Of a stretch of 64,000 nt of DNA, positions 17,177-59,742 are shown piece after piece. The DNA comes from Trissonchulus latispiculum (lineage: Eukaryota > Nematoda > Enoplea > Enoplida > Ironidae). Each line of letters opens with the position of its first letter. Within the stretch, counting starts at the first letter, position 1. The notes beneath the pieces are model-generated. The model did not search any database. It was not told the origin of the DNA and saw only the letters and a list, made by a program, of their open reading frames with translations. Made by a program: the position numbers and the translations under genes. The stretch spans positions 1 to 64,000 of the forward strand of contig JASAND010011226.1 in NCBI GenBank assembly GCA_030248195.1, written 5' to 3'.

Positions 17177-29360
<12,184 letters not shown>

Positions 29361-29556: not shown

Positions 29557-30981
29557 TGTAATAAAATGGGGTCTACTCGTCTTGTTTATCGGATAATGAC
29601 GCACTGGTTTAATTCCCTTATAGCCTCCCAAATCCACTATTTTAACACAAGTATAATACCAGGGGTGGTTACAGTTAGAATATCTGCGCAGTCGTTCTGT
29701 CTACTAATTATTCAGTTATTCCAGTACCTAACTAGAAACTTATTCAGGAATAGCCGTGAAGGTTTTACAAGGTTTTAATGATTCTAGGTATTATTTTAAA
29801 CAGTCACGGTTATCAACATTCAGCATAAAAAATACGTTTTACATTCAAATTCCGCCGTTGAGGTTCAATACAAGTATACAGTGACATACATGAAGTTCCA
29901 TCACAAAAGAGGCATTATTCCCTAGGTAGACATAGACAAAATTCACAATATTGCAAATGGATCAACTAGTCAGTGAAGAACATAGGAGAAAATGTTTTAG
30001 CTCAGTTTTTAGACAAATCTTTGAACGTTCTCAGTTTAATTATCGCAACTCTTCTTACTCACGGTTGGTAGAGACAGCGATTGGCACAGTGAAATTAAAA
30101 TCACAGGAATAGAATAGGAATCCGGGTTGGCAGCGGAGTTAAAAGTTAATGCAGCACAGACAAGTAAATCCTCCCAAAAATTGATACCGGAATCAACCGC
30201 GTATTTGGTCTTCGCGACCCTGAGAAATCCGCTCCAACTGGCTATAAAGAGCCCACGGCGTATCAGCCGAAAAGTGACAGAACACAAACAGACAGGGTGA
30301 AAAACCGCAATTCGCTAAGGCTGCCAACCCACGACTGAAGTTCAGGTCTTCTCACGAACTGAACTTCAGCCGTACCTCCGATAGAGGGCGTTCCAACTTT
30401 TGGAATTGTCCAATCGCTGACTCTCTACCGTATACCTGTTTTCGTCGGTCCTCTTTATTTTCGAGAGAGAACCGACCCAGCATGACGTCGAAGGAGCTTG
30501 CGTAACTTTGGGGTCAAACTTTGATTGCTTTAGGGCTTTTCTCAAGGCTCCTTTCAGACGATTTCTCTTTCAATTTTCTCTTCCAAAAGCACTCAAGTAG
30601 AAACCCTGATAACGTCACAAAACACTTAGCTTCAGTATTTCCAACAATTTCAGACTCATCACACAAAACAAACAGTCCTGGGCAATATGTATAAAATCTC
30701 GCCAAACCGACAATTCAAATTTCAAGTAGCTATCTTCATTTTGGTTCCAGAAATACAACGAGTTATGAATTTCCAACAAACCAAGCATTTCAATTCCTAA
30801 CCAATATCAGCATTAGCCAAACTTCAGCAAACAACTACAAAACACAATTAGTCGCAAACAACCCAAGGAAACAGCTGAATTCTTCCATTCCAAGATTTAC
30901 CTCAACATTTCACTTAAAACAATTCTAAAAAATGCTCCAAAATATGTTCTAGACCAGTAAGCAGATTTTGCTGTCTCCACA
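29557..30981 (-). repeat. 3' LTR
   Basis: On the minus strand it begins TGTGGAGACAGC and ends TTATTACA. It lacks a 48-bp block present in the other LTR (45867-45914) and has a 38-bp block near 30700 that the other lacks. The neighbouring sense-strand purines GTGGAGTGGAG just before it may be the polypurine tract. Confidence 0.95.
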
Positions 30982-32949
30982 CTCCACTCCACAAAAAATG
31001 GGGGGAAGTTCGACTAGGGGGGAAAATTTTTGAAACATAAACAGTGCAATTCAGTTCTAGAATATTCACAGGATATCGACAAGTCAACAGTAAGACAGTG
31101 TACAGCAGAGCCCAAACCTAGATAATCACAGCTAAAATCAGTGCAAGCATAATGATTAGAGTCACAATTCACATAGGCGTTGTCGGTGGCGGATGGCGAT
31201 GGCAGTAGAGTCAATATCGGTTACAGTTCAGTCGCAGTTGTAGTGGCGGCAGCAGAGACAGTATCGGCCGGTAACAGTTCATACATCGGCCAGTAAGAGG
31301 TGGGCGCAGACGTGCAGCCCCGGGGACTAGAGATTCCAGTTGGGCAAACTGGTGCGGCAGTGCACACAGTTGACAGCAGAGGTTTGGGGGGTCCAGACGG
31401 GCAGATACCAGGGCTGAGAGTGTGCCGCTGGTCAGGGAAGTCAGCGGGCGCCGACGTGGGGAACGGAGATGAGCCGGACTCTGAGATGAACAAGAGCCGG
31501 AGGTGGTGATGACGGTGATGATGAAGACGGTGCTGGGAGGTGAGTGGAGACAGTCGGACGGTACAGCAGGAGAATGGTGCATCAGCCGGATAATTGAACG
31601 CGAACAGGAACTGAGGAATCGAACCGCGGACCAACTGATCAAGAAACAACCACGCCAAACTGTCCAGAAAAAACCACGGATAGAAAAACAGCCTATAATT
31701 AGAACATTGTCCGGAATAAGTAAACAGTTATAATGAACAAAGACAAAGGGACTGCAGTAACGAGTTACTTTTACATCACCGCTTAAGAGAACCAAATTCA
31801 CCAACCCAAAGTAAGTACCAGCAATTCAAGAATCTCAGCAACCAAAAAGAAATCAACGAAGCCTAGCGCCCATTTCTTGACAGTTCGTTAGATAGTAGAA
31901 TCATGACAACCAAAGAAAGCTAACAGCACTACCGTTAGGTCTAATTCTATGCCGATTGCAAAATAAACCCAGAAAGTTAAACCAAATAACCAAGTCATAA
32001 TCAGCTAAGATTCAGAATAGCAATGACCAAAGATTCAGCAGACTTCAACCAGTTAGGTGCCACAAAGATACAAACAGACAGAAAACAAAAAGTTAAACGA
32101 AACTCAGTTAGTAATCGTTATTCAGCTCTTGAATTGTGTTGCAGGCCAAGCAGGCCATTCTGATCCAGAGTCCACTGAAATCTCTTGACGGTGGTGGCAG
32201 ACCAAAAACCTCACTTCAAAAGGAAGGCTAAAACTAGTACAAACATGGGCACGAAGGAACAGTAACTGCTAATCACACGGTTTTATTCTTGCTACTGTAT
32301 CGTTTATATTTTTAGAATCATTCCAGAGAGAACATCTTACCTAATCATCATCATAAGTGCGTCTCATTCTTCAAATCACTAAAAGACAGTGCGAATTCAT
32401 CAGTGGCAGCGCAACTCGTAACAAAAATGTGCAAATCGCAAGATAACAATCAATTCTGAGCAACATTCAGTTTTCAACAGTCATCATACAAAAGTTTTGG
32501 TGTGGTGTATTTCAGATTCCTGGCGTTATTCTACGTAGCATGACAGTTTCTGTAGGGGGGACCAGGGAGTCAATCGGTCCGGTTGTAGCTAACCGTACAT
32601 TCAAGGGGCATGGAGAACCTAGGGAAACCGTCATACTACGCTCTGTGCATGCATTCTTTTCTTCATCTGCTAAACATCAACTACCAACAACAGATAACAT
32701 ATAGCTGGTCTGGTACTAACTCGATCTTATTTACTTCTACTTCACACTCATCACTTATTAGGGGAAGGGGACAGGGATCAACATGCAGCTCAACAGATAT
32801 TCGCGCTAGGGAAAAGGGCAGGGATCTTTCACTAGACACAGCAGAAAATTCATCAAGTACCACTTTTGTTCATCATTCAAGCTCAATAATCGCTATAAAA
32901 GTATTCAGAAAACAGTTCTATTACCAGCCACGAGGCCCAAACAGTTTAC
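30982..32949 (-). other. 3' region of the giant element
   Basis: About 2 kb between ORF B and the 3' LTR. Overlapping frames of 145 and 197 codons at 31211-31804 are Ser/Pro/Leu-rich, contain (CAC/CAT)n-like His runs and show no domain. I treat the region as mainly untranslated. Confidence 0.4.
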
Positions 32950-33501
32950 TTAGAATTCATGCGACATGATGTTAGCAGGCAACATAGGATGTGAACCAGG
33001 CAAAGCATGCAACAGAAAAGACACCAAATCAGGCATTTGGTTGTCAGGAAATGCACGACCAGACACGCACCAGCTGGGGTGCTCATACAAAATCAAAGTG
33101 CAAGAACTACCACAAATACGGTTTGGACAACGAAAAATAGCATTCCGGGAGGGGAAAAGCTCAGGCACAGCTTTTTGCAGGCGGGACTTAACGGAAAAGG
33201 ATGCAAACTGAAGTTGGAGAGGGGCCGGGAGAAACTTAATGGGGACACCGTAAAATGACAACTTAAATTTCCAAAAACAAGACAGACAGAGAACAGAACA
33301 TAAAGTGAGAATCTCTGATCCGAACAGAGAAGTGACCTTACCAGGGACGAAGAGTTTGGAGGTGGCTGGGGCCGTATACACACAGTCCTGATATGGGGAC
33401 ATCCGCAATTCCGCAGGGAGGGTGAGCTGATCACGCTCCGGCCCGCGTTGTTCCACGGTGACGGTGGAGGCAGCGTGGGTAGGGGGGCCAGGGTAGTACA
33501 C
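32950..33501 (-). CDS. Accessory ORF B, paralogue of ORF A
   Basis: C72-L-S-C75-F-W-K-F, then L-S-F-Y-G-V-P-I and F-R-C125-P-N-R-I-C130, align with the same blocks of ORF A. The end P-A-N-I-M also matches P-S-N-I-Y. The 5' end is uncertain: no ATG opens the conserved part apart from an internal Met. The acidic N-terminal region may be encoded in the overlapping frame at 33490-33683, joined by splicing (a CTTCCTTCCCCTCAG acceptor-like site precedes it) or broken by an indel. Confidence 0.6.
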   Translation of the reverse strand: MYYPGPPTHAASTVTVEQRGPERDQLTLPAELRMSPYQDCVYTAPATSKLFVPGKVTSLFGSEILTLCSVLCLSCFWKFKLSFYGVPIKFLPAPLQLQFASFSVKSRLQKAVPELFPSRNAIFRCPNRICGSSCTLILYEHPSWCVSGRAFPDNQMPDLVSFLLHALPGSHPMLPANIMSHEF

Positions 33502-33764
33502 GAGCAGTCGTTTGGCCTGGGGTCCTGAGGGGAAGGAAGGGACGTACAGGTGGCGGAGTCCGCGGAAACCACAGAGCCCCGGTCAGAGTCATCCAGATCT
33601 AGGCAATCAGATGACCAATCACTGTCCTCAGACTTCTGATCGCAGGGGTGGGGCCATTCATAGACAGGTCCACAGACAAAGGCCATGATTTTATAACAAT
33701 TAGACAAGAACATGAGAAATTTATGGCAATCATCACAGAGACAAAGTTTGTGGGACGTAGACAA
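33490..33764 (-). CDS. Possible N-terminal exon or segment of accessory ORF B
   Basis: An open frame with Cys-rich (C-L-C-D-D-C-H) and then acidic Ser/Asp-rich sequence (D-C-L-D-L-D-D-S-D). Its composition resembles the start of ORF A. Beyond about 33490 this frame becomes Ser/Pro-rich noise over the conserved ORF B. Confidence 0.35.
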
Positions 33765-33824
33765 GGGACAAGAGATAAAACTAAGGATTGAACAGAAGAA
33801 GTAATAACCTTTAACTAAACTTAA

Positions 33825-34493
33825 CTAAATGGGAATAACTCGATAGCTACACCGCACACCAGAAATACCAATAATATTAGGACAGTAATTAGGCGGATCC
33901 TCGCCTGTACGCATGCGAAAATCATAAATATTGGACGGTAAGTACTGCGACAAACGGATGGCAACATCACGCAACGCTCCTATAGCTTCGTTGGACAGAA
34001 CAGAAAAACCCTTGCCTAGAGGCCAACCGTCAAGTTCTTGAAGCAAAACAACATACACAGACTGGCATTTAGCATTGGGACAACGAAATACACCACCACT
34101 ATATGAGGGTTCAAAAGCACGAAAATACTGTTTGGTCAACACACTAGACTTGCGCACTTCGTCACTTACGGGGAACACAGTTATAGGAATTCCATAATAA
34201 CTTAAACCAAACCTCCAATAACATTCAGTACAAATTAAGGTGGCAATTTGAGCAACGTGTGGGCCAACTAGATTTATCCGTTTATTAGCTTCAAGCATCT
34301 GCAATTTCGTAGGATCAGTTAAAATATCCACAGTTCCACGCAGCATACTCAATCCATCAGGCATACAATCATAATCACGATAGGGACCTCTCATGTGTGG
34401 GGGACAAACCAGCGGCAACGGCGCTGGGGGAGTGTCATCGGTAGGGTCACGATCAGGCGACGAACTCAAGTTACTAGGCACCCTGGGGGCCAT
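33825..34493 (-). CDS. Accessory ORF A, paired-cysteine protein
   Basis: ATG at 34493, 222 codons, no recognised family. The N-terminal 30 residues are Ser/Asp/Pro-rich. C88-T-E-C91-Y-W-R-F and F-R-C138-P-N-A-K-C143 form a possible zinc ribbon. A second ORF with the same layout lies just downstream at 32950-33501, pointing to a tandem duplication inside the element. Function unknown; a nucleic-acid- or protein-binding accessory factor is possible. Confidence 0.65.
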   Translation of the reverse strand: MAPRVPSNLSSSPDRDPTDDTPPAPLPLVCPPHMRGPYRDYDCMPDGLSMLRGTVDILTDPTKLQMLEANKRINLVGPHVAQIATLICTECYWRFGLSYYGIPITVFPVSDEVRKSSVLTKQYFRAFEPSYSGGVFRCPNAKCQSVYVVLLQELDGWPLGKGFSVLSNEAIGALRDVAIRLSQYLPSNIYDFRMRTGEDPPNYCPNIIGISGVRCSYRVIPI

Positions 34494-35215
34494 TTGTACC
34501 TAAACGGAAGATTCCCTCAATAAACAATATAATTTCCGAACTCACGACCTTTGGTTATTTGCAATTACGACACATCTCATCAGACAATTTGGCATTCACA
34601 CACGTTAACATCAGTTACTAGCTACAAGAACAAAAAGTTAAATTTGGAGATTATATGAATGTTTTTTGAGTTTTCTGGAGTTTATGTTACTTTTTCTAGT
34701 AGTGTTTTATTTGTTTTTCACTGTACATTAATCTACTAATCAAGATACTATATTACAGAGTATACAACTAGTTATAGTAATAATACCTAACTGGTTACCT
34801 TATTTTTATTGTCAGGAGATATTTTTATATAGTTTTCTATCCTTTTGTATCCTTTTTTTGTTTGAGGTAATCCTCAGGGTTTTCTGAGCAGCATCTTTTT
34901 CGAAGTCCTTTTTCCCGGAGCTGCGACCCGGAGACTCCCGGTGACCCATAAAGACCAAAAGTCTACGTCGAATTTTGGTAAGGATGTTAAAACCAAAATC
35001 AGAACGAAAAGGTTTATGCCCAGCATGGGGCGGTTTTCTAGTTTGCACTCAAAAATCGGTGCGTGGTCGGGTCAACAAATGTCAACAAGCATACAGACAA
35101 TAATTTACAATTGCAATGGCTGTACAAGATCGTAGCTAAAGTTATTGTTACTCTATGTTACAACATTTACAGTGAAGTCTATATTACATACTATTTCAAT
35201 ATCTAGTTTCAGGTA

Positions 35216-36076
35216 TTATAAATCGTGATCAGATTCAGTGGATTTTGGGGAACGCTTTGTCCTAAGGAAGGGATTCCTAAATTTGGGATTCGGACCCGAG
35301 AACAGCGGGCTTTTGGCGAATAGACGCGCAATGTCAGGTGCGGCCTTAGAGTGTTTATGCTTCCCGGATTCGGTGGAAGAAGACTGACTAGAAGAGCTGG
35401 TTACCAGTTCGTGGACAACCACGTTGGGAGCCTTGCTAGTGGGCCATTTTCCCCGGGGTGGGTCACGTACAGACAATACAATCATAAAATGGTCACTGTT
35501 GATGTTATATAGGTATAATGATCTGCGTTCGGTGTTAAAGCCTTTACCTAGAAAAGCGGATGGCAAGAAAGTTTGCCAAGCCCAATCATTGCCAAATTTC
35601 GAGTAAGACAAAATGGGTGTTTGTAGCCATGCGGCCGCAAGGAAAATTTCATCATCCGTAGCATATTCAAAAACTTTATGTAATCTCGTCCTTACTTTAT
35701 GAAGTTCGGGAAACATAGATTTAAAACGCTTTTTGTGTTCATTCATTTCCAAAAATGTCGCAAGTTCCTGTTTTACATCCCTCCAAGAATCTTCCATCCC
35801 CGTTATCGCAAGCGAGAGAGCCCTATAGTAGCAGTTACCGTCTCCTAGAATATCTATTACCTCGTATGGTTCATAGAGGGGCATGTGCTCCAATAAAACG
35901 GGTAAGATATGACGAATTTTGAAACCTTTAAGAAAAGCGATGCGTTTTTGCCATTCACCATTAATCGGAACAAAAAGTTTGCGTCTACGATCAGCTTCAT
36001 CCTCTTGATCCTTCAGAAATGATTCTTCAGAAATAAAAAACAGGCATTGAACTGCCCTCAGACTCGGAGCTGGCAT
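35216..36076 (-). CDS. OTU-family cysteine protease (putative deubiquitinase)
   Basis: The ATG at 36076 lies 14 nt after the integrase stop. The OTU signature is clear: D79-G-N-C82-Y-Y-R-A-L-S-L-A carries the catalytic Cys, E-I-F-L-A-A-A-W is the mid-domain helix, and N-S-D-H196-F-M-I-V-L carries the catalytic His. OTU enzymes cleave ubiquitin or ubiquitin-like linkages. Here it could counter host ubiquitin-based control or process the polyprotein; both are inference. A Ser/Lys-rich tail of about 80 residues follows. Confidence 0.88.
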   Translation of the reverse strand: MPAPSLRAVQCLFFISEESFLKDQEDEADRRRKLFVPINGEWQKRIAFLKGFKIRHILPVLLEHMPLYEPYEVIDILGDGNCYYRALSLAITGMEDSWRDVKQELATFLEMNEHKKRFKSMFPELHKVRTRLHKVFEYATDDEIFLAAAWLQTPILSYSKFGNDWAWQTFLPSAFLGKGFNTERRSLYLYNINSDHFMIVLSVRDPPRGKWPTSKAPNVVVHELVTSSSSQSSSTESGKHKHSKAAPDIARLFAKSPLFSGPNPKFRNPFLRTKRSPKSTESDHDL

Positions 36077-36090
36077 CTCTGACCTGTAAT

Positions 36091-37671
36091 TTAGGAGGGG
36101 GCCTTTCGTTGCTTAGGTGAAAGGGGGATTCGCGGAGCATTAGGTACGGGTTCAGGCGTGCGAGCATTAGCCTTGTCAGCAAGCCTAGCAGAAGTCCTAC
36201 GCTTCTTAAGTTCAGCCTTTTCAGGTTTAACGTTTTCCGATTTAACTGGAGGCTTTACCTTTTCCTTCGGAACGGAGCGGGCACGTTTGACAGGGACGGG
36301 GGATAATTCTAGTGATCGAATTTCAGCTTTCGGGACCGAAGGTCCAGGTACATCCAATTGCAAACTTTCATGCTCGGAAATTTCAGAATTTTCGGGGGAA
36401 TCGTCATCATGCTCATGTTGGGGGGCAGTAATCACACGTGGTTCAATACATGGCACCATGTTATTAAACTGTACCTTGATACGTTTGGCTCGGCGATTCC
36501 CAGCAGGATATATTTCAGCAACACACCCAACGATTTTCTCCATACGATATGGGCCGGTTCGTTTGTCCAACATCTTGTGGACCTGATCTTTCTTAGCTAC
36601 ATTGGTTGCCTTAATCATAACGAGATTCCCCACCTGATATAGAGGTTCTACTGCGTTCTTATTGTAATTACTATCTTGAACCTCTCTAGCTGCACCAATC
36701 TTCTCCCTAGCTAAAGACCAAGCTAATTGCAATGCTTCAGTAGCTTCACGTACGTAGTCAAATCCAGCATATCTACGATCAGTAGGTATAGCAACATTAG
36801 TAGCACTGGGTAAAACAGGGTCCCATGCATGCAACAGGTAATGGGGGGTTTCCCCGGTGGTAGCATTTACAGATGTATTGTAAGCAAACTGACAATAGGG
36901 AACCATATTATCCCATTCTAAATGATTTTCGGTTATGGTGCTCAGCATATATAGCAGAGTCCTATGCCATCTCTCAATTTGTCCATTTGCGGCGGGATGA
37001 TATCGAGTAGTTTCTAATTTACGGGTTTGGACCAACGAGCAAATTTCTTTGTTTAACGTAGCAACGAATTCTTTCCTTTGATCAGAGAGTAGAAGTTTGG
37101 GTGCACCGTACTGTAGAATTATAAACTCCAAGAAAGTTTGGGCAACCGTATAAGCCTTTTTGTTTTTGATAGGGATAGCTATTACATATTTAGAAAACGC
37201 GTCGATATCGCTAAGAATATGTTTCATGCCACTGGTAGATGCTTTGCTTATGTCCATGATGTCGCAATGTACCCTCTCGAATGGTTCAAGAGGCATCGGG
37301 GGGTGTCTTAAAAGAGCTTTCGGGTTTTTAGGGGGACCCTTGCGTCGTCGTTGACACCGTGGGCAGGATTTGACCCACTGTTTAACATCTGCATGCATTC
37401 CTGGCCACCAAAAGTATTCAGCCAGCCGAAAGGAAGTTTTATTACATCCTCCGTGGGCGGCGTACGGACTGTCATGGCAAGCGGCCAAGGCTTCTTCCCG
37501 CAAACTCTCTGGCACTGCTAAGACTTCTAAAACGGTGTTACGTACCTTCTCTAAATAAACCAGAACCCCATCACGCATATCACACCGTTCGGCTAGCGAG
37601 GCAATACGTACTGCAGGGTTGAAGTTACTAGGTAAGTTATGGTTAACCTTATATTCAATTATCTCACTCAA
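36091..37671 (-). CDS. Integrase of the giant element
   Basis: 526 codons. The zinc domain has H66, H73, C103 and C106. The DDE core has D137 (H-C-D-I-M-D), D197 (L-S-D-Q-R-K-E-F) and E233 (N-G-Q-I-E-R-W) with the standard 35-residue D-E spacing. A C-terminal DNA-binding region and a long Lys/Arg/Pro-rich tail (about 440-526) follow, possibly a nuclear targeting region. The usual Gly after S-D-Q is Arg here. No chromodomain is seen. Confidence 0.92.
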   Translation of the reverse strand: MSEIIEYKVNHNLPSNFNPAVRIASLAERCDMRDGVLVYLEKVRNTVLEVLAVPESLREEALAACHDSPYAAHGGCNKTSFRLAEYFWWPGMHADVKQWVKSCPRCQRRRKGPPKNPKALLRHPPMPLEPFERVHCDIMDISKASTSGMKHILSDIDAFSKYVIAIPIKNKKAYTVAQTFLEFIILQYGAPKLLLSDQRKEFVATLNKEICSLVQTRKLETTRYHPAANGQIERWHRTLLYMLSTITENHLEWDNMVPYCQFAYNTSVNATTGETPHYLLHAWDPVLPSATNVAIPTDRRYAGFDYVREATEALQLAWSLAREKIGAAREVQDSNYNKNAVEPLYQVGNLVMIKATNVAKKDQVHKMLDKRTGPYRMEKIVGCVAEIYPAGNRRAKRIKVQFNNMVPCIEPRVITAPQHEHDDDSPENSEISEHESLQLDVPGPSVPKAEIRSLELSPVPVKRARSVPKEKVKPPVKSENVKPEKAELKKRRTSARLADKANARTPEPVPNAPRIPLSPKQRKAPS

Positions 37672-37698
37672 AGGTAGGTCCTCAGACTGTGATTGTTG

Positions 37699-38139
37699 CT
37701 ATCGCGACCAAGACTTAGGGTTAAGGGTAACATTAGTTTTGTCCCTTACAGCAACGTCGAAAACAGTCCGAAAGGCGGCTGATACAGGGTCACTTCGCTT
37801 TTTCCGTCCAGTTTCAGACCGAAATTGCTCACGAATATCGTCTGCATCGGACGAGCTAGGACTGGCCATAACCTTGCGTGGAGACAACTTTCGACTGGGA
37901 ACGTTTGGTCTATCTGATGATGGATCGGAAACTTCACCAGATTCACGTAGTTTTGGTTGTTTTTGAGGAGTAGGTACACGTTTTTCTGAACCGTCAGAAT
38001 CATTTGGTTGTGAAATACGCGAAAGTTTAGACTTAACGGTAACGGTGCTTTTTCGAGCAAACGTTTTACTGATTTTCGGAAGTTGGAAAGAACGATCCCG
38101 ACCTTCCCCTTTTACGACCACCGAGTTAATGTGTGCCAC
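37699..38139 (-). pseudogene. RNase H to integrase linker, Ser/Lys-rich
   Basis: A 146-codon frame of polar, Ser/Lys/Pro-rich sequence (K-S-K-L-S-R-I-S, S-S-S-D-A-D-D) connects RNase H to integrase. It is in the integrase frame but separated from it by a single TAG at 37699. Confidence 0.55.
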
Positions 38140-38414
38140 TAATTCGTCACCATCCTCCTGATGAAATTTAATAGACTGTCGGTCACTTTCCTTCTCTTTA
38201 CCTGATAATCCCCGTGCAACGTCAGCAAACAGAGGATTTCGTGATAACCCGTCAGCATTTCGTAGATGGGGTTATTACGATGCTTAATCTCGAAATCGTA
38301 TTCCGAAAAGGTCATCTGCCATCTGGCCAACCTAGAATTTCGTGGGGGGTGTTTCATTAACCAACGCAGGGCTGAATGATCAGTAAAAAGAGTAAACGGG
38401 GGACCACCGTACAA
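38139..38414 (-). pseudogene. RNase H C-terminal fragment, out of frame
   Basis: Y-G-G-P-P-F-T-L-F-T-D-H-S-A-L-R-W-L is the end of Gypsy RNase H, with the final catalytic Asp in T-D-H. It is in a -1 frame relative to the long ORF, and the frame changes again near 38260. Confidence 0.8.
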
Positions 38415-38443
38415 ATAATGTCGAAAATGCTCGATACCGTATT

Positions 38444-41400
38444 TTATAGCCAGACATTCTTTATCGTGAGTGGAATAATTTCGTTCATACTTTTTGAGGG
38501 AGCGTAAGCTACGGGATGATACTTTCCATCATCCTGCTCTTGCGAGAGTACTGTCCCCAGTCCCAAATCAGATGCGTCAGTTTGCAACACAAAACCCTTA
38601 GCCAAATCAGGGTGCGCCAGAACTGGTGCGGTGACTAAACTTTTCTTAAGCAGATCAAAAGACTGCTGATGCGTATTATTCCATACGAATCGGACCCCTT
38701 TCTTCTTAAGCGAATATAATGGGGCGACTAGATGTGCAAACCCTTTAATAAACTTGGCATAATATGCACACATCCCTAGAAAACTCTCCACGTCCTTAAT
38801 TGTCTTAGGTACAGTCAGCTCGTTAATGGCTTGTATGCGGTTCTTTAAAGGCTCTACTCCCTGATCGGAGATAATATGTCCTAAGTAGGTAACAGACTTC
38901 TTGAGGAAGTGACATTTTCCAGGATTCATTTTAAGATCCGCCGCGCGTAAGCGATCGAAAACCTCTTGCATGATTTCGAGATGTTCATCAAACGTTTTGG
39001 AGAAAATAAGAATGTCATCAATATAGATGATACACTTTTTCCACTGCAAATCACCCAAAATTCTTTCCATACAGCGTTGAAAATTTCCCGGCGCGCATTT
39101 TAATCCAAAAGGCAAAACGTTATATTCAAATTGCCCATGAAAAGTGTTGAAGCTTGCCTTAGCTTTCGCTTCTTCGTCTAACTCGATTTGATTAAACCCC
39201 TTACTCAGATTAATAGTAGAAAAGTACTTGGCGCCCTTCAAAGAGGTCATGATGTCATCAATTCGAGGAATGGGATAAATATCTGGATCACTAATTTTGT
39301 TGACTCGTCTAAAATCAACACACAAGAGTAATTTCCCACCCGGCTTCGGTACGTAAATCATGGGCGAACTCCACGGACTAGTGGAAGGTTTAATTAACCC
39401 ATATTTCAACATCTCAGTTAGCTCTTCTAGTAATGGCTGTCTCAGATGTACAGGGAGCCTATAGGGGGTGGCATAAATAGGTTTGGCCTCACCAGTGTTA
39501 ATATGTGCCTTAAAGATGGTACACTTTCCAATGTCAAAAGGATGCTGAGAAAAACAAGCCCGATTTTCATTCAGAAGTCCCAGAAATTGCCCACATTCAC
39601 TTTCGGTTAAATTTTCTTTATCGAAAGATATTTCCCGCATGGGTTCGGGTAAATCAGACAGTTCACAGGATCGAATATTCTTGAGGGTGTTAACTCGAAA
39701 GCGTGAACCCTCCTGAAGGTTTTTCATGTTAGGTTTTAATCGACTCCCCAACTTGACAGATTTCCCACATTCATTCATAACTTCCTGGTATTGAAACAGA
39801 GGTTTGTCCCTTCGAAGCTCATTATAGGGTACTACATGCCCTAGAGTGGAATTACCATATACGGTGACTCGCTTTCCCGTCTTATTACGCATAATCACAG
39901 GTATACAGCGCGTGCGTAAGTTGACCATGGCAGGCAGAGCTTGTACCTCGCTATGATCAGGGTCAAACTTGAGAGAGTTGGGTTCAAAACACCCATCGTA
40001 CTTCAGGGGCCCTACACTTTCTACTAATCCAGGAATAGCTACTTCGGAATAAGGTGGTAACTCAACTTGCTTAATAGAGGATACCCGAAAAGCTGTTTCC
40101 GTGAGAGGTGAATGATGAATTAGTTTAGACACCATGGGAGTATGCTCGGGCTTACATAGCCGCAATTCTCCTTTACTACTCAGTGTCAGATCACCACCGT
40201 GTTCATGTAGGAAGTCAGTGCCTATCAGGCAGTCCTCAGCCACTCCTTTTGGTACCAAAAAGGTGTGTTCTACTTTCACTCCGGGTGAGTCATGAAATTC
40301 AACCGGTAAACGTACAGAACCGCGGAATCCTAGCGTTTGCCCATTTATGCCCTCTGCTCTAGGGGGCCGTTCTAAAGGGGTGATCGATAGATTGAGGAAT
40401 TTAGCCAAATCTTCACTCATTAGACTAAGATTGGCTCCCGTATCTACCAAAGTTTGAACTGCTCTATTATTGATCGTCAAGTATATCATAGGTTGGGGTC
40501 GGTGGGGGACGGTTCCGGTATGATTTCTGGCTTTCTCATGAGAACTACGCGACGCACCTATCAGGTGAACCTGCGAGCCATGATAGCGTTGATGGGGTCT
40601 CAGAGGCAGAGTGACCCGTGAACCGTCTTCGGTAGGCCATGTGATAGTATGTAACCCCAGGTCGAGTGAGATTTCACCCGGAAAATGCAACATAAAATCA
40701 GACCCTAGTATACAGTCTACCGTTAATGCATCGACAACCGTAAAGGTCCATTGTTTTACGGGGAGTGCCTTTCGGGTATGCTGAAACATGAGGGGTACAT
40801 GTGTCACACCTACTATTCGGCTCTTTCCCCCGTTTGCCGTGCGGATATAGTGATGAGTTCCAGTAGATTCTATCGGTAAGTTCAGTCGTGCGGCCAGGCG
40901 GGCACTCATTACCGAGACCAGTGAGCCTGTATCAAACAAGGCATCTACGGTATGACCGCAGATCAATAGGGCCATAAGCAGAGGTACAGTCCTAACCATC
41001 AGTACAGAGTGTGCGTTGATCACCCGACTAGTGTTATCTACGACCGGCCGAGTTTTCCTTCTGTCTGATTCGTAGTCAGCTCGGCGAGCGGCATTTGATC
41101 GCTTAAAAGGGCTAGTGGCGGCATCAGAATGCGAGATTAGAGAAGAATCCGTAGTGGGTTCTTCCTCAGATTCGGAGTTCCCATGAGTGTCCTGACGGGA
41201 GAATCGAACTATCCGCCGATCTGGCTTCTTTCGTGCTTCGAGGTTTAACTCAACTGTAGGAGAGGGACAGTGTTCTCGACTATCCTCACTCAACAACTGT
41301 GTAGTGGCCTCTAAATCCCTAGCATTGTAATCTGACATAGAGGAAGCATAAGAGGTATCTCGAGACAGTGGCCTGAAGGCAGAGGTGGCTTGACATCGGT

Positions 41401-43096
41401 TAGCAGTCTTACGGATGTCATCGTAGGTATCAGAACGATTTACGGTTCTTAGCGGGGTGGTCTCGTTCCCTGTTGTGTCCGTTCCTAATTCTACATCGGG
41501 CTCCTCCTCATCATCGCTGAAAGGGGATACGACTGCGCGTCGTACATTTATGGGGGCGCAGATGGCCGGAGCAGGGGGCTTAGGGTCCCCTCCCCATCGT
41601 GACTTGATTTTGCGCATAAACTTTCTACCGCATGGAGTCATCCAAAATATAATCACACAACCAATAACTATGATCAAGATAACTAACATCAGACCGTGAT
41701 TCAATTGAATAGGTACAAAAGGTAAATCTACGTACTTTTTCATCTGGTTCTCGATCAGATTCCTAGCTTGTTCATTCTCATATTCTGCGGTAGAGAGCTC
41801 AGTAAAATGTAACGGTATCCTACCGAGGGGGGCAGGTACAACAGCTTCCCTAAGTTCTGACATGCGGGCAACGATAACCTCAGTGTAGTTCGTACGAATT
41901 AATACACCGGCAGGGGTGGTACGATACTCAGTAGAATTATCCAAGACCTTAATTTTAACATAGTCTTTGCAGGAAACAAATTCCTTTTCAACAGTCTTAT
42001 CAGAAAAAGAGATTGGTATTTGCAAACATTTCGCGCGCAAAGTTGTGACAATAGCGTTTGGAGGACAAAACCACAAGCCGGGGGCCGTTTTACACTCGGT
42101 AACTTCAATTTCACGTACCTCGCCAGAATCTAGTCGCTGTGCATATTCAGGCATGGGGGCCATGGTCGTTATGCCCCGTTCCCGAGAGTTATATCCCAAG
42201 TTATGAACAGCATATAAGGGTCGAACCTCGTGCTCTAAAGGGACAGGAATTTCTAGCACGAAACCAAAACGTAGGGTGTTAAAATCAATTTTGATTGGAT
42301 AAACTTTCCCAAACTGATAAATCAGACTAGGCTCGCGGTTCAACAAGGAGTTCTTAAGAGATGGGTGATTCCTAATGATCTCTTTTAAAGTTTGCAAATT
42401 TACCAATCCCGGGGTAATTTCAGTCCTCAAGCCTGCATGCATAACAGAATTTAGTCCTTCGCGGAGTGAGGACGTAAAAATGTGCGCTAGCAATTGCATA
42501 TACACTTGACGCATGTCCGAGAAATTTGAACAGCGAGCACGAATAATTAGGGTGGTTAAGTCTTGCACAGTATGATGTAAAAAGGCGTAGACCTGCTCGT
42601 TTGCGTGTACAATTTTATGAACTGAGTCGGTAATTTTCATCTGCTCATTCCGCAAAAGGTGAAAACCCTGTTCAACTGCATCCATTTTACCATCTAATTT
42701 ACCTAGGTGATACGAATTCGACAAACTGTTAGCAATACCCCCTATACCTAGAGCACCCGCTAACAAGAATTCAATAAAACGTTTCGGCCTCTTAGGAGTG
42801 TCACTCGGGAGATAGGATGTACAAACTCCGGGCGTAGACCGACATAAATTAGCCAATAATTTAGAGTAAAAATTAGTATTCAAAACGCTAGAATACAGTT
42901 TTCGACATTCTGCTTTGATCTGATCGATTTCATTTTCCAAAAACCGGTGTTGGGGACAGCTCTGGTTGATCATACGTACACAATACTGATCGGTCTTGGC
43001 CTTGCCTGTATTCAAATCAATACAGTCCTCCTCATTAGCCCACTCAGGTGGATTCCATTCAGGAGAAATAGAGGGAACCTCTAGCTGAACGATCAA
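38444..43096 (-). CDS. Envelope-like / double protease / RT / RNase H polyprotein ORF (1550 codons)
   Basis: One uninterrupted frame. Residues 1-500 look like an insect-type retroelement or baculovirus-F-like class I glycoprotein: Cys-rich N-terminus, a furin-like R-P-K-R at 103-106, then a Gly/Ala-rich hydrophobic stretch, a helical region, further Cys pairs and a membrane segment at about 468-486. A polar tail leads to retropepsin 1 (D-T-G-S, 722-725) and retropepsin 2 (D-T-G-A, 885-888). RT follows, with L-C-V-D-F-R-R at about 1258, L-P-F-G-L at 1328 and Y-I-D-D at 1358-1361, then RNase H T-D-A-S at 1506. The first RT catalytic Asp position is Asn (residue 1296, AAT), so polymerase activity is probably lost. 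The last 15 residues look frame-shifted. Confidence 0.9.
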   Translation of the reverse strand: MIVQLEVPSISPEWNPPEWANEEDCIDLNTGKAKTDQYCVRMINQSCPQHRFLENEIDQIKAECRKLYSSVLNTNFYSKLLANLCRSTPGVCTSYLPSDTPKRPKRFIEFLLAGALGIGGIANSLSNSYHLGKLDGKMDAVEQGFHLLRNEQMKITDSVHKIVHANEQVYAFLHHTVQDLTTLIIRARCSNFSDMRQVYMQLLAHIFTSSLREGLNSVMHAGLRTEITPGLVNLQTLKEIIRNHPSLKNSLLNREPSLIYQFGKVYPIKIDFNTLRFGFVLEIPVPLEHEVRPLYAVHNLGYNSRERGITTMAPMPEYAQRLDSGEVREIEVTECKTAPGLWFCPPNAIVTTLRAKCLQIPISFSDKTVEKEFVSCKDYVKIKVLDNSTEYRTTPAGVLIRTNYTEVIVARMSELREAVVPAPLGRIPLHFTELSTAEYENEQARNLIENQMKKYVDLPFVPIQLNHGLMLVILIIVIGCVIIFWMTPCGRKFMRKIKSRWGGDPKPPAPAICAPINVRRAVVSPFSDDEEEPDVELGTDTTGNETTPLRTVNRSDTYDDIRKTANRCQATSAFRPLSRDTSYASSMSDYNARDLEATTQLLSEDSREHCPSPTVELNLEARKKPDRRIVRFSRQDTHGNSESEEEPTTDSSLISHSDAATSPFKRSNAARRADYESDRRKTRPVVDNTSRVINAHSVLMVRTVPLLMALLICGHTVDALFDTGSLVSVMSARLAARLNLPIESTGTHHYIRTANGGKSRIVGVTHVPLMFQHTRKALPVKQWTFTVVDALTVDCILGSDFMLHFPGEISLDLGLHTITWPTEDGSRVTLPLRPHQRYHGSQVHLIGASRSSHEKARNHTGTVPHRPQPMIYLTINNRAVQTLVDTGANLSLMSEDLAKFLNLSITPLERPPRAEGINGQTLGFRGSVRLPVEFHDSPGVKVEHTFLVPKGVAEDCLIGTDFLHEHGGDLTLSSKGELRLCKPEHTPMVSKLIHHSPLTETAFRVSSIKQVELPPYSEVAIPGLVESVGPLKYDGCFEPNSLKFDPDHSEVQALPAMVNLRTRCIPVIMRNKTGKRVTVYGNSTLGHVVPYNELRRDKPLFQYQEVMNECGKSVKLGSRLKPNMKNLQEGSRFRVNTLKNIRSCELSDLPEPMREISFDKENLTESECGQFLGLLNENRACFSQHPFDIGKCTIFKAHINTGEAKPIYATPYRLPVHLRQPLLEELTEMLKYGLIKPSTSPWSSPMIYVPKPGGKLLLCVDFRRVNKISDPDIYPIPRIDDIMTSLKGAKYFSTINLSKGFNQIELDEEAKAKASFNTFHGQFEYNVLPFGLKCAPGNFQRCMERILGDLQWKKCIIYIDDILIFSKTFDEHLEIMQEVFDRLRAADLKMNPGKCHFLKKSVTYLGHIISDQGVEPLKNRIQAINELTVPKTIKDVESFLGMCAYYAKFIKGFAHLVAPLYSLKKKGVRFVWNNTHQQSFDLLKKSLVTAPVLAHPDLAKGFVLQTDASDLGLGTVLSQEQDDGKYHPVAYAPSKSMNEIIPLTIKNVWL
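40165..40945 (-). other. Tandem retropepsin domains
   Basis: Two aspartic-protease domains lie about 160 residues apart, with active sites A-L-F-D-T-G-S and T-L-V-D-T-G-A. Each is followed by the expected I-L-G-S-D-F or L-I-G-T-D-F flap-end block. Retropepsins usually occur once per polyprotein and dimerise. Confidence 0.88.
41597..43096 (-). other. Envelope-like glycoprotein domain (residues 1-500 of the long ORF)
   Basis: This is the membrane-fusion glycoprotein portion, in the place between gag and protease. Potential N-glycosylation sites include N-Q-S, N-F-S, N-S-T and N-Y-T. The membrane segment at about 41640-41695 (V-I-L-I-I-V-I-G-C-V-I-I-F-W) is followed by a basic stop-transfer stretch. 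No stop codon separates it from the protease region. Confidence 0.8.
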
Positions 43097-43121
43097 TGCT
43101 AGGTATTCCGTTTTCCTCCTA

Positions 43122-43412
43122 TTAACTCCTGTTAACTCCTATTCCCGCAGGACTGAGTACAGCTCCCCAGCGGGGTAAAACTACGGTGCCTATCTTTGCA
43201 ATCTCATCGGACAGAAAATGGGACGTGCCCGAGTCCGAGGCACTCTGCGCATTAGCCGAGGACAGCATCAACCCCAACATCATCCAAACTAGAGGGGTGC
43301 TAAACCGGCGCAAAGATTTCATAGCTGCTAGCATAGACAAAAAGGGCAAAAACATTATGGAAAAATTCCCTTTCCCCTTTTCGGTATCCTTTTTGTCCAG
43401 GTTTTCAATCAA
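43122..43412 (-). pseudogene. Envelope-like protein, signal-peptide segment
   Basis: The frame holds a hydrophobic signal-peptide-like segment (L-V-W-M-M-L-G-L-M-L-S-S-A-N-A) followed by a short polar stretch. It stops at 43122. The rest of the glycoprotein is in a different frame starting about 20 bp on, and the change of frame coincides with a 10-bp tandem duplication at 43121-43140. As it stands the leader and ectodomain are not continuous. Confidence 0.6.
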
Positions 43413-43430
43413 CTCATCAGAGAAGATTTC

Positions 43431-44231
43431 TCACTGAACTCCCAGAGTACTGGAGCTTACAGGGATCTCTCGTTCCTGAAAGGCTTCACAGACTCGATTA
43501 CCCAAGTGTTCAGAACTGGGTATCGGAATAAACAATTCCTCATCAGTAGAGGTCACAGTGGTCGGGGTCAGCGCGCCTTTGAGTGGGAATGAGGGTTCAA
43601 ACCTCGGTTCAGGTCGGCAGGTGCAAACCATCGGCTGACGATACATAAGCACTTTATGAGAGAAATGGGGTGAAGCTAGACACCGTTTGGCGTGTCGCGT
43701 ACAGTTCGGGGAAACCATCCTTACCGAACGGGCAGAGTGTCCACTGGCAGAGCCGGAGTCAGACCGAGGATGCCAGCGGGGAGACCTATGTCTAGCAGGA
43801 GACCAATTACCACGGTTACTTCCAGAGTATTCGGAGGAACGTGAACCATTCCCACTTCCCCGTCCATTATAGTACCCATCTGAATTTTGAACGCGAGATC
43901 GGAAAACAGCAAATTTGGGCTCGTATTCACGCTTCATTTCCGGGGGCAAATCGGATCGAGGTTCCCTACGATCAGACCCCCTGTCCCGTTCGTACCTATC
44001 GTTAGGTCTATCCCGGTCTCTCCGATTATCATGATAACCTGAATTATAATTCCTATTTCCTCTATTATCTTCATAACGTGGTTGGTTACCGTTGTAATTG
44101 TTCCGGTAACGATTATAGCCGTCGCGGTTGGGTCCCCCAGAGTTTCCTTGAGAATTTCGATTTCGGTCATCATTTCGGGCGGAATTTCGATCGTTCTTTC
44201 TCGAAAAGCGCCTCCACCAGGCTGTCGACAA
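43431..44231 (-). CDS. Basic RN/RG-rich Gag C-terminal region in the -1 frame
   Basis: The frame overlaps the end of the gag ORF by about 300 nt. It has dense R-N-D, N-Y and R-G residues at 1-170, suited to RNA binding, then a Pro/Ser-rich end. It is offset -1 relative to gag, so it needs a frameshift near 44230 or reflects an indel. No canonical slippery heptamer is obvious there. Confidence 0.6.
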   Translation of the reverse strand: MSTAWWRRFSRKNDRNSARNDDRNRNSQGNSGGPNRDGYNRYRNNYNGNQPRYEDNRGNRNYNSGYHDNRRDRDRPNDRYERDRGSDRREPRSDLPPEMKREYEPKFAVFRSRVQNSDGYYNGRGSGNGSRSSEYSGSNRGNWSPARHRSPRWHPRSDSGSASGHSARSVRMVSPNCTRHAKRCLASPHFSHKVLMYRQPMVCTCRPEPRFEPSFPLKGALTPTTVTSTDEELFIPIPSSEHLGNRVCEAFQEREIPVSSSTLGVQ

Positions 44232-45121
44232 TCACGCCGCACATGCCCTGGTTTGTTACAGTTAAAACAAGTTGTACCTGGAGGTAGATCGCGTGTACGA
44301 TCTCCTCGACCAGAATTTGCTAGCTTTTTTGTAGTTTCAGCTTCCAACTTCTCGAAACGGTATTTTAGGTCTCGCACTGCCTTTTCTGCTTCAGCGAGTG
44401 CTGTAGGAGCGCTGTTACTTTCTCGAAAATTCGGTTCTAGAAAGGAAGGGTAACCCTCCCCAGGATATTCTCCCTCAGCCTGCTGTGCCCTTTCTACGGC
44501 CTTGGCAAGAGTGGGACAACCCGGCGGAACTCTGTTTTTCAGTTCCGTTCGCAACCCGAACAAAAACAACCACAACTTCAGTAATTCTATCTGCTTGTCA
44601 GTGAAGCCATCTTCTTCTTTAAAACTAAGCCTAGCATACCGGTTCAACATCATCAGATAATCAGAAACAGTCTCGCCTTTTTCTTGTTTTACATGAAACA
44701 TGAGGGACGAAGCATGTAATGCTGTGTGGGGGGGAACCATAATTTTCTTAGCTTCAGAGATCATATCCTCCCATGTCCCACGACTAGCCTTAGGTACAGA
44801 TCTGAATAGTTCCAATGCCCTACCCTGTAGTGAACTAGAAAACGTATAGACTTTCTGCCAATCATCAAAATTCATCACCTTGCAGAATCGCTCATATTTT
44901 TCCACGTGTTCCTCGAAAGATTCAGAGGGAAGGCCATGGTGGATTGGTACCGAGCTAAACGCCGTAGCGACACCCTGTGCTCGGACCACTGCATTAAATT
45001 CGGTTAACGTTTTAGTCAATTCCGTCAAAGCAACAGTTTCAGGATTCAGACTCGGGGTGGGCGAACTTGTTGGTGGGGTGGTAGGTGATGACCCCGCCCC
45101 GTCCTCAGTAGTATCTGACAT
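43934..45121 (-). CDS. gag: Gag of the giant element (capsid and zinc knuckle)
   Basis: ATG at 45121. The acidic Ser/Thr/Pro-rich leader (1-30) is followed by a retrotransposon capsid region (about 60-215) with F-x-x-x-L-x-G-R-A-L-E-L-F and W-x-D-M-I-S-E, then one CCHC knuckle, C-F-N-C-N-K-P-G-H-V-R-R-D-C, at residues 285-298. After about residue 305 this frame turns into hydrophobic Ile/Thr-rich sequence, while the overlapping -1 frame is Arg/Asn/Gly-rich. The true C-terminus therefore probably lies in that other frame. Confidence 0.85.
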   Translation of the reverse strand: MSDTTEDGAGSSPTTPPTSSPTPSLNPETVALTELTKTLTEFNAVVRAQGVATAFSSVPIHHGLPSESFEEHVEKYERFCKVMNFDDWQKVYTFSSSLQGRALELFRSVPKASRGTWEDMISEAKKIMVPPHTALHASSLMFHVKQEKGETVSDYLMMLNRYARLSFKEEDGFTDKQIELLKLWLFLFGLRTELKNRVPPGCPTLAKAVERAQQAEGEYPGEGYPSFLEPNFRESNSAPTALAEAEKAVRDLKYRFEKLEAETTKKLANSGRGDRTRDLPPGTTCFNCNKPGHVRRDCRQPGGGAFRERTIEIPPEMMTEIEILKETLGDPTATAIIVTGTITTVTNHVMKIIEEIGIIIQVIMIIGETGIDLTIGTNGTGGLIVGNLDPICPRK

Positions 45122-45337
45122 GTTACTGAAATTATCTTAGCTATTCAGAAAATTATTTTCGTACGTAGAATGATAATATAAAATTAATACAAGGTTATAA
45201 CAATTATTATAACAACAAGCATGTACCGGGTGAGTTCTTCTAGGATAAATAGGAGCCTCGAATTTTTAAGGAAATAAACAAACAGTTTTGTTGTCTAAAA
45301 GATTCCAAAATTCAAAAGTTAACTCCAAATTTTTATC

Positions 45338-45357
45338 CTCCGAAGGAGGGCTCCACA
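45338..45357 (-). promoter_or_regulatory. Primer binding site candidate
   Basis: Immediately after the 5' LTR the sense strand reads TGTGGAGCCCTCCTTCGGAG. A TGG two bases in fits pairing with the CCA end of a tRNA. I have not identified the tRNA. Confidence 0.45.
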
Positions 45358-46792
45358 TGTAATAAAATGGGGTCTACTCGTCTTGTTTATCGGATAATGA
45401 CGCACTGGTTTAATTCCCTTATAGCCTCCCAAATCCACTATTTTAACACAAGTATAATACCAGGGGTGGTTACAGTTAGAATATCTGCGCAGTCGTTCTG
45501 TCTACTAATTATTCAGTTATTCCAGTACCTAACTAGAAACTTATTCAGGAATAGCCGTGAAGGTTTTACAAGGTTTTAATGATTCTAGGTATTCTTTTAA
45601 ACAGTCACGGTTATCAACATTCAGCATAAAAAATACGTTTTACATTCAAATTCCGCCGTTGAGGTTCAATACAAGTATACAGTGACATACATGAAGTTCC
45701 ATCACAAAAGAGGCATTATTCCCTAGGTAGACATAGGCAAAATTCACAATATTACAAATGGATCAACTAGTCAGTGAAGAACATAGGAGAAAATGTTTTA
45801 CCTCAGTTTTTAGACAAATCTTTGAACGTTCTCAGTTTGATTATCGCAACTCTTCTTACTCACGGTTTTACCTTCCACGTGATCCAAGTGTGAGGAAACA
45901 GGCTGGGCAGGTTCCGGTAGAGACAGCGATTGGCACAGTGAAATTAAAATCACAGGAATAGAATAGGAATCCGGGTTGGCAGCGGAGTTAAAAGTTAATG
46001 CAGCACAGACAAGTAAATCCTCCCAAAAATTGATACCGGAATCAACCGCGTATCTGGTCTTCGCGACCCTGAGAAATCCGATCCAACTGGCTATAAAGAG
46101 CCCACGGCGTATCAGCCGAAAAGTGACAGAACACAAACAGACAGGGTGAAAAACCGCAATTCGCTAAGGCTGCCAACCCACGACTGAAGTTCAGGTCTTC
46201 TTACGAACTGAACGTCAGCCGTACCCCCGATAGAGGGCGTTCCAACTTTTTGAATTGTCCAATCGCTGACTCTCTACAGTATACCTGTTTTCGTCGGTCC
46301 TCTTTATTTTCGAGAAAGAACCGACCCAGCATGACGTCGAAGGAGCTTGCGTAACTTTGGGGTCAAACTTTGATTGCTTTAGGGCTTTTCTCAAGGCTCC
46401 TTTCAGACGATTTCTCTTTCAATTTTCTCTTCCAAAAGCACTCAAGCAGAAACCCTGATAACGTCACAAAACACTTAGCGTCAGTATTTCCAACAATTTC
46501 AGACTCATTACACAAAACAAACAGTCCTGGGCAATATGTATAAAATTCATTTTGGTTCCAGAAATACAACGAGTTATGAATTTCCAACAAACCAAGCATT
46601 TCAATTCCTAACCAATATCAGCATTAGCCAAACTTCAGCAAACAACTACAAAACACAATTAGTCGCAAACAACCCAAGGAAACAGCTGAATTCTTCCATT
46701 CCAAGATTTACCTCAACATTTCACTTAAAACAATTCTAAAAAATGCTCCAAAATATGTTCTAGACCAGTAAACAGATTTTGCTGTCTCCACA
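45358..46792 (-). repeat. 5' LTR
   Basis: Partner of the LTR at 29557-30981. Transcription of the element would start in this LTR and run leftwards. It has TG...CA ends in the sense direction. Confidence 0.95.
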
Positions 46793-59556: not shown

Positions 59557-59742
59557 TTAAAAACTATACTGCAATGGGAAAATTTGTCATTTCTGGTACT
59601 AGCAGCGATGGCGAATCCATAAAGGCAACTGAAAATAATGTAGACAATGCAGAAAAAGTGAAAATATGAAAAACTATTTTTTCCGTTGCTGGCGTAGTGC
59701 CGCAGGCGAAAGGCGATAGATTTATAGTAGAAAATGAATTTT

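What the first reader, a model, noticed from the sequence alone, without database searches (positions are those of the whole stretch)
38444..43412. Envelope-like glycoprotein placed between gag and protease and fused in frame to pol
In known env-bearing LTR elements the envelope gene follows pol. Here a glycoprotein with a signal peptide, furin-like site, hydrophobic stretch and membrane anchor lies directly after gag, and its tail runs without a stop into two proteases, RT and RNase H. If expressed this way, pol would be tethered to a membrane protein until cleaved, which would be a new polyprotein layout. A loss of a stop in this single defective copy is the simpler alternative.
Basis: partly seen in the sequence, partly recalled or inferred. 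Interest (0 to 1): 0.88.

Follow-up and report, generated by a model that had tools for sequence, protein, structure and literature searches.

The report
Retroelement with envelope inside gag-pol polyprotein
This is a retrovirus-like element whose envelope-like membrane protein sits in the middle of one very long reading frame, between the shell protein and the copying enzymes; related copies keep this order under selection, and planarian Burro elements were already reported with the same order.

Summary
The window carries a 17.2-kb LTR element (minus strand, 29557-46792). An envelope-like protein follows Gag and runs without a stop into two aspartic proteases, RT and RNase H. In 39 other copies of the same genome, the joint from membrane anchor to protease lies in one stop-free frame in 30; with the second half of the envelope included, in 22. 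Ten of 39 are open for 2,198 or more codons from within Gag to RNase H; in 2 of 3 followed further, the same phase runs on through integrase and an OTU-like domain. A second search showed frames of 3,300 or more codons around the envelope in 23 of 64 places. Envelope dN/dS is 0.016-0.030, joint 0.09-0.16. The window copy itself is damaged. Fusion-protein identity is weakly supported; structure prediction never ran; host unknown. The layout has a precedent: planarian Burro (PMC6431247) has env in frame between gag and pol. New here are a compact version with tandem proteases and a C-terminal OTU, and the selection test.

The parts
45358..46792 (-). 5' LTR (TG...CA); 1371 of 1388 aligned bases identical to the 3' LTR, plus two length differences of 38 and 48 bases
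29557..30981 (-). 3' LTR; TTTA stands outside both ends of the element (4-base target duplication)
43934..45121 (-). Gag frame with Retrotrans_gag and CCHC; the last part of this frame is out of register with the linker in this copy
43431..44231 (-). gag-envelope linker (Arg/Asn/Gly-rich), in another frame than envelope here; one stop-free frame with signal peptide and envelope in 23 of 39 other copies
43245..43355 (-). internal signal-peptide-like stretch (MFLPF...SSANAQ)
   Evidence: recognised by eye, no signal-peptide program was run, and it did not reach the 1.6 hydropathy threshold
41639..43138 (-). envelope ectodomain and membrane anchor, open frame; 50 codons missing at 41864|41863
42779..42790 (-). 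furin-like site RPKR, followed by a hydrophobic fusion-peptide-like stretch (42778-42719)
41639..41695 (-). membrane anchor (strongest hydropathy peak, 3.07 over 19 residues, in a related copy)
   Evidence: window position counted from the translation
40964..41638 (-). envelope tail / joint to protease, open; dN/dS 0.09-0.16, no alignment gap in 11 long-open copies
40691..40963 (-). first aspartic protease domain (DTG), gag-asp_proteas
40319..40500 (-). second aspartic protease domain (DTG), gag-asp_proteas/RVP; its lower end was cut by the piece scanned
38870..39349 (-). reverse transcriptase RVT_1 (YIDD)
38139..38683 (-). RNase H, interrupted by a frame change in this copy
36091..37671 (-). 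integrase (H2C2 and rve)
35216..36076 (-). OTU-like cysteine protease domain (DGNC and DHF motifs); the C-terminal end of the long frame in 2 of 3 copies followed
33825..34493 (-). accessory ORF A, paralogous to accessory ORF B
32950..33501 (-). accessory ORF B (29% identity to A, E 1e-20)

Best explanation
An endogenous retrovirus-like LTR element, Ty3/gypsy-type by domain order, that encodes Gag, an envelope fusion glycoprotein, two tandem proteases, RT, RNase H, integrase and an OTU-like domain in one frame of about 3,350 codons. Most likely the unspliced RNA gives one polyprotein: Gag stays in the cytosol, the internal signal peptide sends the envelope into the ER, signal peptidase frees Gag, furin cuts at RPKR, the anchor returns the chain to the cytosol, and Pol hangs on the envelope tail until the element's protease cuts it off. 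Shown: the order, the shared frame, selection on envelope, joint, protease and RT, and the sequence motifs. Inferred: one translation product, topology and cleavages, fusion activity, OTU activity, and that the envelope serves passage between cells.
For:: anchor/tail and protease piece in one stop-free frame in 30 of 39 copies; second half of envelope to protease in 22 of 39; linker, signal and first half of envelope in 23 of 39; linker to protease in 16 of 39; 10 of 39 open for 2,198 or more codons; phase kept through IN and OTU in 2 of 3 copies, all three picked among long-open ones; open frame of 3,300 or more codons around the envelope in 23 of 64 scored places., window against open copies: 0.030 env (n=20), 0.164 joint (n=21), 0.044 PR (n=17), 0.021 RT (n=14) out of 22 open copies; among open copies 0.016, 0.086, 0.067, 0.025; no gap cell from the gag-env linker to RNase H (columns 350-2250) in 11 long-open copies; a subfamily with 81% envelope identity inside a 3,346-codon frame; weak match to fusion protein F.
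Against: No RNA or protein data. Acceptor-like sites in reading phase lie before the signal peptide (11 of 11) and between anchor and protease (10 of 11), so frame-keeping splicing is possible. All 11 copies with 1,900 or more open codons fall in one of the two main clades, and none of the 12 in the window's own clade is open from envelope to RT. The dN/dS sets were chosen for being open. One-piece translation gives equal Gag and Pol, unlike most retroviruses (recalled). The signal-like stretch did not reach the hydropathy threshold and two weaker peaks lie at the start of the first protease. The F match is weak, P0001 alone did not give it and Pfam gave no fusion family.
Confidence: 0.62

Rival explanations
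1. Same order and frame, but expressed by in-frame alternative splicing: the envelope is a cassette that is skipped to give Gag-Pol, and kept or joined to the leader to give Env or Env-Pol.
For: Acceptor-like sites in reading phase at -225 from the signal peptide (11 of 11 long-open copies) and at +2301, between anchor and protease (10 of 11); donor-like sites inside the envelope at +640 and +1224 (10 of 11 each). A Met stands at the start of the signal-like stretch in all 19 copies shown. Synonymous change has modest lows just before the signal peptide (0.093) and in the tail (0.110). Cer1 uses a spliced mRNA for its accessory gene (PMC10309623, passages).
Against: No donor-like site shared by six or more of 11 copies lay upstream of the signal peptide in that scan, which began 1,500 bases before it or at the stretch end. 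The weights were recalled consensus values and no RNA was seen. The synonymous lows are no deeper than others in pol.
Confidence: 0.3
2. Loss of a stop codon in one defective copy.
For: The window copy is defective.
Against: The joint is in one stop-free frame in 30 of 39 other copies; its dN/dS is 0.09-0.16; a subfamily with 81% envelope identity has the envelope in a 3,346-codon frame.
Confidence: 0.01
3. The middle domain is a membrane glycoprotein that is not a fusogen, for example a receptor-binding or packaging adaptor.
For: No fusion family in Pfam; only weak F similarity, none for P0001 alone; no structure.
Against: RPKR, then a Gly/Ala-rich hydrophobic stretch, and a C-terminal anchor; the best PDB sequence matches of three of four envelope queries are F proteins.
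Confidence: 0.12

Closest known systems
Burro / GYPSM1 giant gypsy-like elements of planarians (PMC6431247)
   Same: Gag at the N-terminus and env with fusion-glycoprotein homology in frame between gag and protease in a single giant ORF
   Different: Burro ORF1 is 4,873 aa (5,140 aa in a reconstructed Dugesia element) with MATH/TRAF, BIR, BCL2, dUTPase and other domains, and the element exceeds 30 kb; here about 3,350 codons, two proteases, a C-terminal OTU, 17.2 kb. No Burro sequence was at hand for comparison
TelKA LTR elements of bdelloid rotifers (PMC5408684)
   Same: LTR element with paramyxovirus-F-like env, RXXR site, fusion peptide, anchor
   Different: env is ORF3, a separate ORF
Drosophila gypsy and other errantiviruses
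   Same: Env-bearing gypsy elements; env derived from baculovirus (stated in PMC5408684, passage)
   Different: env is expressed as a separate ORF (stated for other gypsy-like elements in PMC6431247)
Cer1 of C. elegans (PMC10309623)
   Same: no stop between gag and pol; spliced accessory gene
P0001, an unnamed protein of a public assembly (source 'lgn')
   Same: 41% identical over 93% of the envelope query
   Different: predicted as a free 692-aa protein; its contig could not be read, so its neighbours are unknown

Membership tests
Ty3/gypsy-type LTR element (Metaviridae-like) | LTRs with TG...CA and a target duplication | tested here: met
   (TTTA, 4 bases)
Ty3/gypsy-type LTR element (Metaviridae-like) | Gag-CCHC and domain order PR-RT-RNaseH-IN | tested here: met
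Ty3/gypsy-type LTR element (Metaviridae-like) | RT/IN phylogeny inside the group | not tested
   no reference sequences were aligned
Burro-like elements | env in frame between gag and PR | tested here: met
   against PMC6431247 section 7
Burro-like elements | MATH/TRAF, BIR, BCL2, dUTPase domains in ORF1 | tested here: not met
   none among Pfam hits at E 0.1 in nine window pieces from Gag to OTU; the stretch 43122-43412 was not scanned and remote homology was not tested
Burro-like elements | total length above 30 kb | tested here: not met
   17.2 kb between outer LTR ends
Burro-like elements | sequence relationship of RT or env | not testable with these tools
   no Burro sequence was at hand; host of G000 not identified
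Class I fusion glycoprotein (paramyxovirus F / baculovirus F) | profile similarity | tested here: inconclusive
   two very similar F chains, E 0.0017 and 0.028, 0.0014 and 0.03, 0.047 and 0.3, none for P0001 alone; no Pfam fusion family
Class I fusion glycoprotein (paramyxovirus F / baculovirus F) | furin site followed by fusion peptide, C-terminal anchor | tested here: met
   by motif and hydropathy only
Class I fusion glycoprotein (paramyxovirus F / baculovirus F) | trimeric coiled-coil fold | not testable with these tools
   structure prediction busy, then switched off
OTU cysteine protease | Pfam profile above gathering score | tested here: met
   24.0 bits against 23.3 in one related copy; 21.1, below it, in the window copy
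OTU cysteine protease | catalytic Cys and His motifs | tested here: met
   DGNC and SDHF seen in the window translation; that these are the OTU motifs is recalled

The most novel reading that the evidence does not exclude
A lineage of envelope-dependent retroviruses, independent of or much reduced from Burro, in which Pol is obligatorily made as the cytoplasmic tail of the envelope glycoprotein, so that polymerase is packaged through Env rather than by a Gag-Pol frameshift, and an OTU enzyme is delivered as the last part of the same chain.
Probability: 0.35. Interest if true: 0.85.

Novelty: new variant of a known kind. Interest (0 to 1): 0.62.

Why it matters
Textbook retroviruses make Env from a separate message and Pol by frameshift or readthrough on Gag (recalled). 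Here selection has held Gag, Env and Pol in one frame through large silent divergence, with Env about as constrained as RT. That makes it testable whether a retroelement can package its polymerase through Env, and gives the Burro layout, which my ten literature searches found described in one paper, a compact and well-sampled second case.

Tried and rejected
Stop loss in one copy: rejected. The 150-base difference as a spliced intron: not supported, since all 39 copies have the segment, it codes for 50 residues in the open copies shown, and in the one copy looked at its ends show no GT...AG, within the slack of the alignment. Viral contigs with P0001, the env alignment and integrase: 3 scans, no relative. 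Phage records with an envelope piece: none. Protein database: the env piece found 1 relative among 7,999 scored candidates, the env part of the long ORF none among 7,996, the alignment only P0001 again among 8,000. PHROGs: nothing useful. OTU piece against PDB sequences: weak matches only, best E 0.047, several of them OTU enzymes. Host identity: COX1 searches did not complete (last); Rfam on the window gave two tRNA-like hits only. First piecewise count: its pieces come from the window copy and so skip the 150-base segment; some copies counted open there have a stop in it, so I recounted with whole frames. Literature: ten searches; among what they listed only PMC6431247 was seen to describe env in frame between gag and pol; subscription papers and preprints are largely not held, so absence is not shown. 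Papers: PMC6431247 passages and section 7; PMC5408684, PMC10309623 and PMC12471100 passages; others as listings only; nature25473 not held.

Full report
What is in the window. On the minus strand lies an LTR element from 46792 to 29557. Its LTRs (about 1.43 kb) are identical at 1371 of 1388 aligned bases, with two length differences of 38 and 48 bases; they begin TG and end CA, and TTTA stands outside both ends. This is a complete and fairly recent insertion. In element order it holds Gag with a CCHC knuckle, an envelope-like part without a Pfam match, two aspartic protease domains, RT, RNase H, integrase, an OTU-like domain and two paralogous accessory ORFs.

The window copy is damaged. Gag and envelope lie in one frame and the linker plus signal peptide in another; a 50-codon piece of the envelope is missing although all 39 other fetched copies have it; RNase H is interrupted and further breaks lie before integrase. 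It is a poor copy from which to judge the layout.

Other copies. A nucleotide search of the own genome (734 Mb, 21,732 contigs) with 1 kb of envelope scored the best 40 of 292 candidates: the window and 39 others. I fetched about 6.8 kb around all 39, less where contigs ended. Ten of 39 are open for 2,198 or more codons in a single frame from within Gag to RNase H, and 22 of 39 have a frame of at least 1,180 codons somewhere in the stretch. Asking for one stop-free frame: anchor/tail and protease piece in 30 of 39; second half of envelope to protease, with the 150-base segment, in 22; linker, signal peptide and first half of envelope in 23; linker to protease in 16; envelope to RT in 12. A first count by pieces of the window copy gave 24 and 22 of 39 for the two joints, but it could not see stops in the 150-base segment that the window lacks. 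In the two pieces that make up the env-protease joint, an in-frame stop without a shift was counted in 0 and 2 of 39, and shifts in 4 and 5. Nothing like a conserved stop is there. The Gag piece was open in 12 of 39, cut short or absent in 17, shifted in 8, with a stop in 2.

Clades. In a tree of envelope pieces (38 of 39 copies passed a length filter, plus the window) all 11 copies with 1,900 or more open codons lie in one main clade of 26; the window's clade has 12 others and none of them is that long. In the window's clade the env-protease joint is still in one stop-free frame in 9 of 12, the second half of envelope to protease in 2 of 12, and envelope to RT in 0 of 12.

Downstream. I followed three of the long-open copies for 3.3 kb more: two keep the same coordinate phase open through integrase and OTU to a stop, and one has a stop and a frame change. 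A separate protein search of the genome with the distant relative P0001 had 1,039 candidates and scored 64; a stop inside the envelope match was reported in 1 of 64, and the open frame around it is 3,300 or more codons in 23 of 64, 2,000 or more in 47 of 64, shortest 1,058, longest 3,396. At least three of these contigs were also. I did not map the other domains in these 64 places. One of them belongs to a subfamily whose envelope is 81% identical in protein and sits in a 3,346-codon frame. So Gag, Env, PR, PR, RT, RH, IN, OTU in one frame is a property of the family, shown from within Gag to OTU in two copies and in large part in many.

Selection. Between the window and open copies, median dN/dS is 0.030 for envelope (n=20, dS 0.65), 0.164 for the joint (n=21, dS 0.39), 0.044 for protease (n=17) and 0.021 for RT and RNase H (n=14); 22 open copies were offered and those that matched a piece poorly were dropped by a score threshold. 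Among open copies the ratios are 0.016, 0.086, 0.067 and 0.025. The copies were chosen for being open, which removes nonsense but not missense changes. In the 11 longest there is no alignment gap from the gag-env linker to RNase H. In a neutral simulation of one copy's linkers, the env-protease joint stayed free of stops in 737, 288, 194 and 42 of 2000 runs at 0.05, 0.10, 0.12 and 0.24 substitutions per site, and the gag-env linker in 381, 86, 40 and 1; the median silent distance between two open copies is about 0.24, so about 0.12 per lineage. A single copy could be open by luck; many together with low dN/dS could not. Both joints are therefore translated in this frame in at least one product.

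What the middle domain is. In a related open copy it has a signal-like stretch ending in ANAQ, an RPKR site, a Gly/Ala-rich hydrophobic stretch, 12 cysteines (two of them at the anchor), four N-glycosylation motifs and one strong anchor. Against this, the signal-like stretch did not reach the hydropathy threshold used, and two weaker peaks lie at the start of the first protease; no signal-peptide or coiled-coil program was available. Pfam has no fusion family. Profiles of three and four envelope sequences found fusion protein F first among PDB sequences, E 0.0017 and 0.0014; the two chains matched align almost identically, so this is one line of evidence, and the stretch over the cleavage site was not significant (-2.3 bits). 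A single sequence gave E 0.047; P0001 alone gave no F. I read this as a probable but unproven class I fusion protein. Structure prediction was never available.

How it would work. The order fits membrane topology: cytosolic Gag, internal signal peptide, ectodomain in the ER, anchor, cytosolic enzymes. Signal peptidase would free Gag, furin would prime the fusion protein, and the element's own protease would free Pol. Envelope is about as constrained as RT, which is expected if spread needs infection and not only copying within a cell. The OTU domain, above Pfam's gathering score in one related copy (24.0 against 23.3) and below it in the window copy (21.1), suggests removal of ubiquitin from element or host proteins. 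All this is inference. In-frame splicing is the main rival: acceptor-like sites in reading phase lie before the signal peptide (11 of 11) and between anchor and protease (10 of 11), and donor-like sites lie inside the envelope; none shared by six or more copies was found upstream of the signal peptide. Synonymous change has modest lows near both joints, no deeper than others in pol. There are no RNA data.

Comparison. PMC6431247 (passages; [quoted passage not shown] The layout is therefore known. Burro exceeds 30 kb with a 4,873-aa ORF1 (5,140 aa in a reconstructed relative) carrying many other domains; here the frame is about 3,350 codons with tandem proteases and a C-terminal OTU, and none of Burro's extra domains was among the Pfam hits. 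I do not file this as a Burro element. Whether the two are related could not be tested: no Burro sequence was at hand and the host was not identified. Rotifer TelKA elements carry a paramyxovirus-F-like env, but as a separate ORF3 (PMC5408684, passages).

Verdict. I rate it a new variant of a known kind, with the selection evidence and the compact Gag-Env-Pol-OTU chain as the new parts.

Noticed in passing
32950-34493: Two tandem accessory ORFs after the OTU region are paralogues of each other (29% identity, E 1e-20), share an FRCPN..C pattern and have no Pfam match.
   Followed up: partly
40319-40963: Two retropepsin-like domains in tandem in one chain, each with a DTG; a possible single-chain protease pair.
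   Followed up: partly
57531-59557: Plus-strand-oriented stretches resembling the element's LTR (longer pieces 73-86% identical), probably an older relative or solo LTR.
   Followed up: no
45300-45356: Just after the 5' LTR is a perfect short inverted repeat (CCTCC TTC GGAGG) beside the presumed primer site; the primer tRNA was not identified.
   Followed up: no
L009-L047, envelope pieces: All 11 long-open copies lie in one of two main clades (26 of the 38 copies in the tree), on several branches, with median silent distance about 0.24 and almost no amino acid change in envelope; this suggests several long-lived active lineages rather than one burst.
   Followed up: partly
19658-19715 and 20584-20654: Two tRNA-like Rfam matches, the second in a repeated stretch, possibly a SINE.
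   Followed up: no
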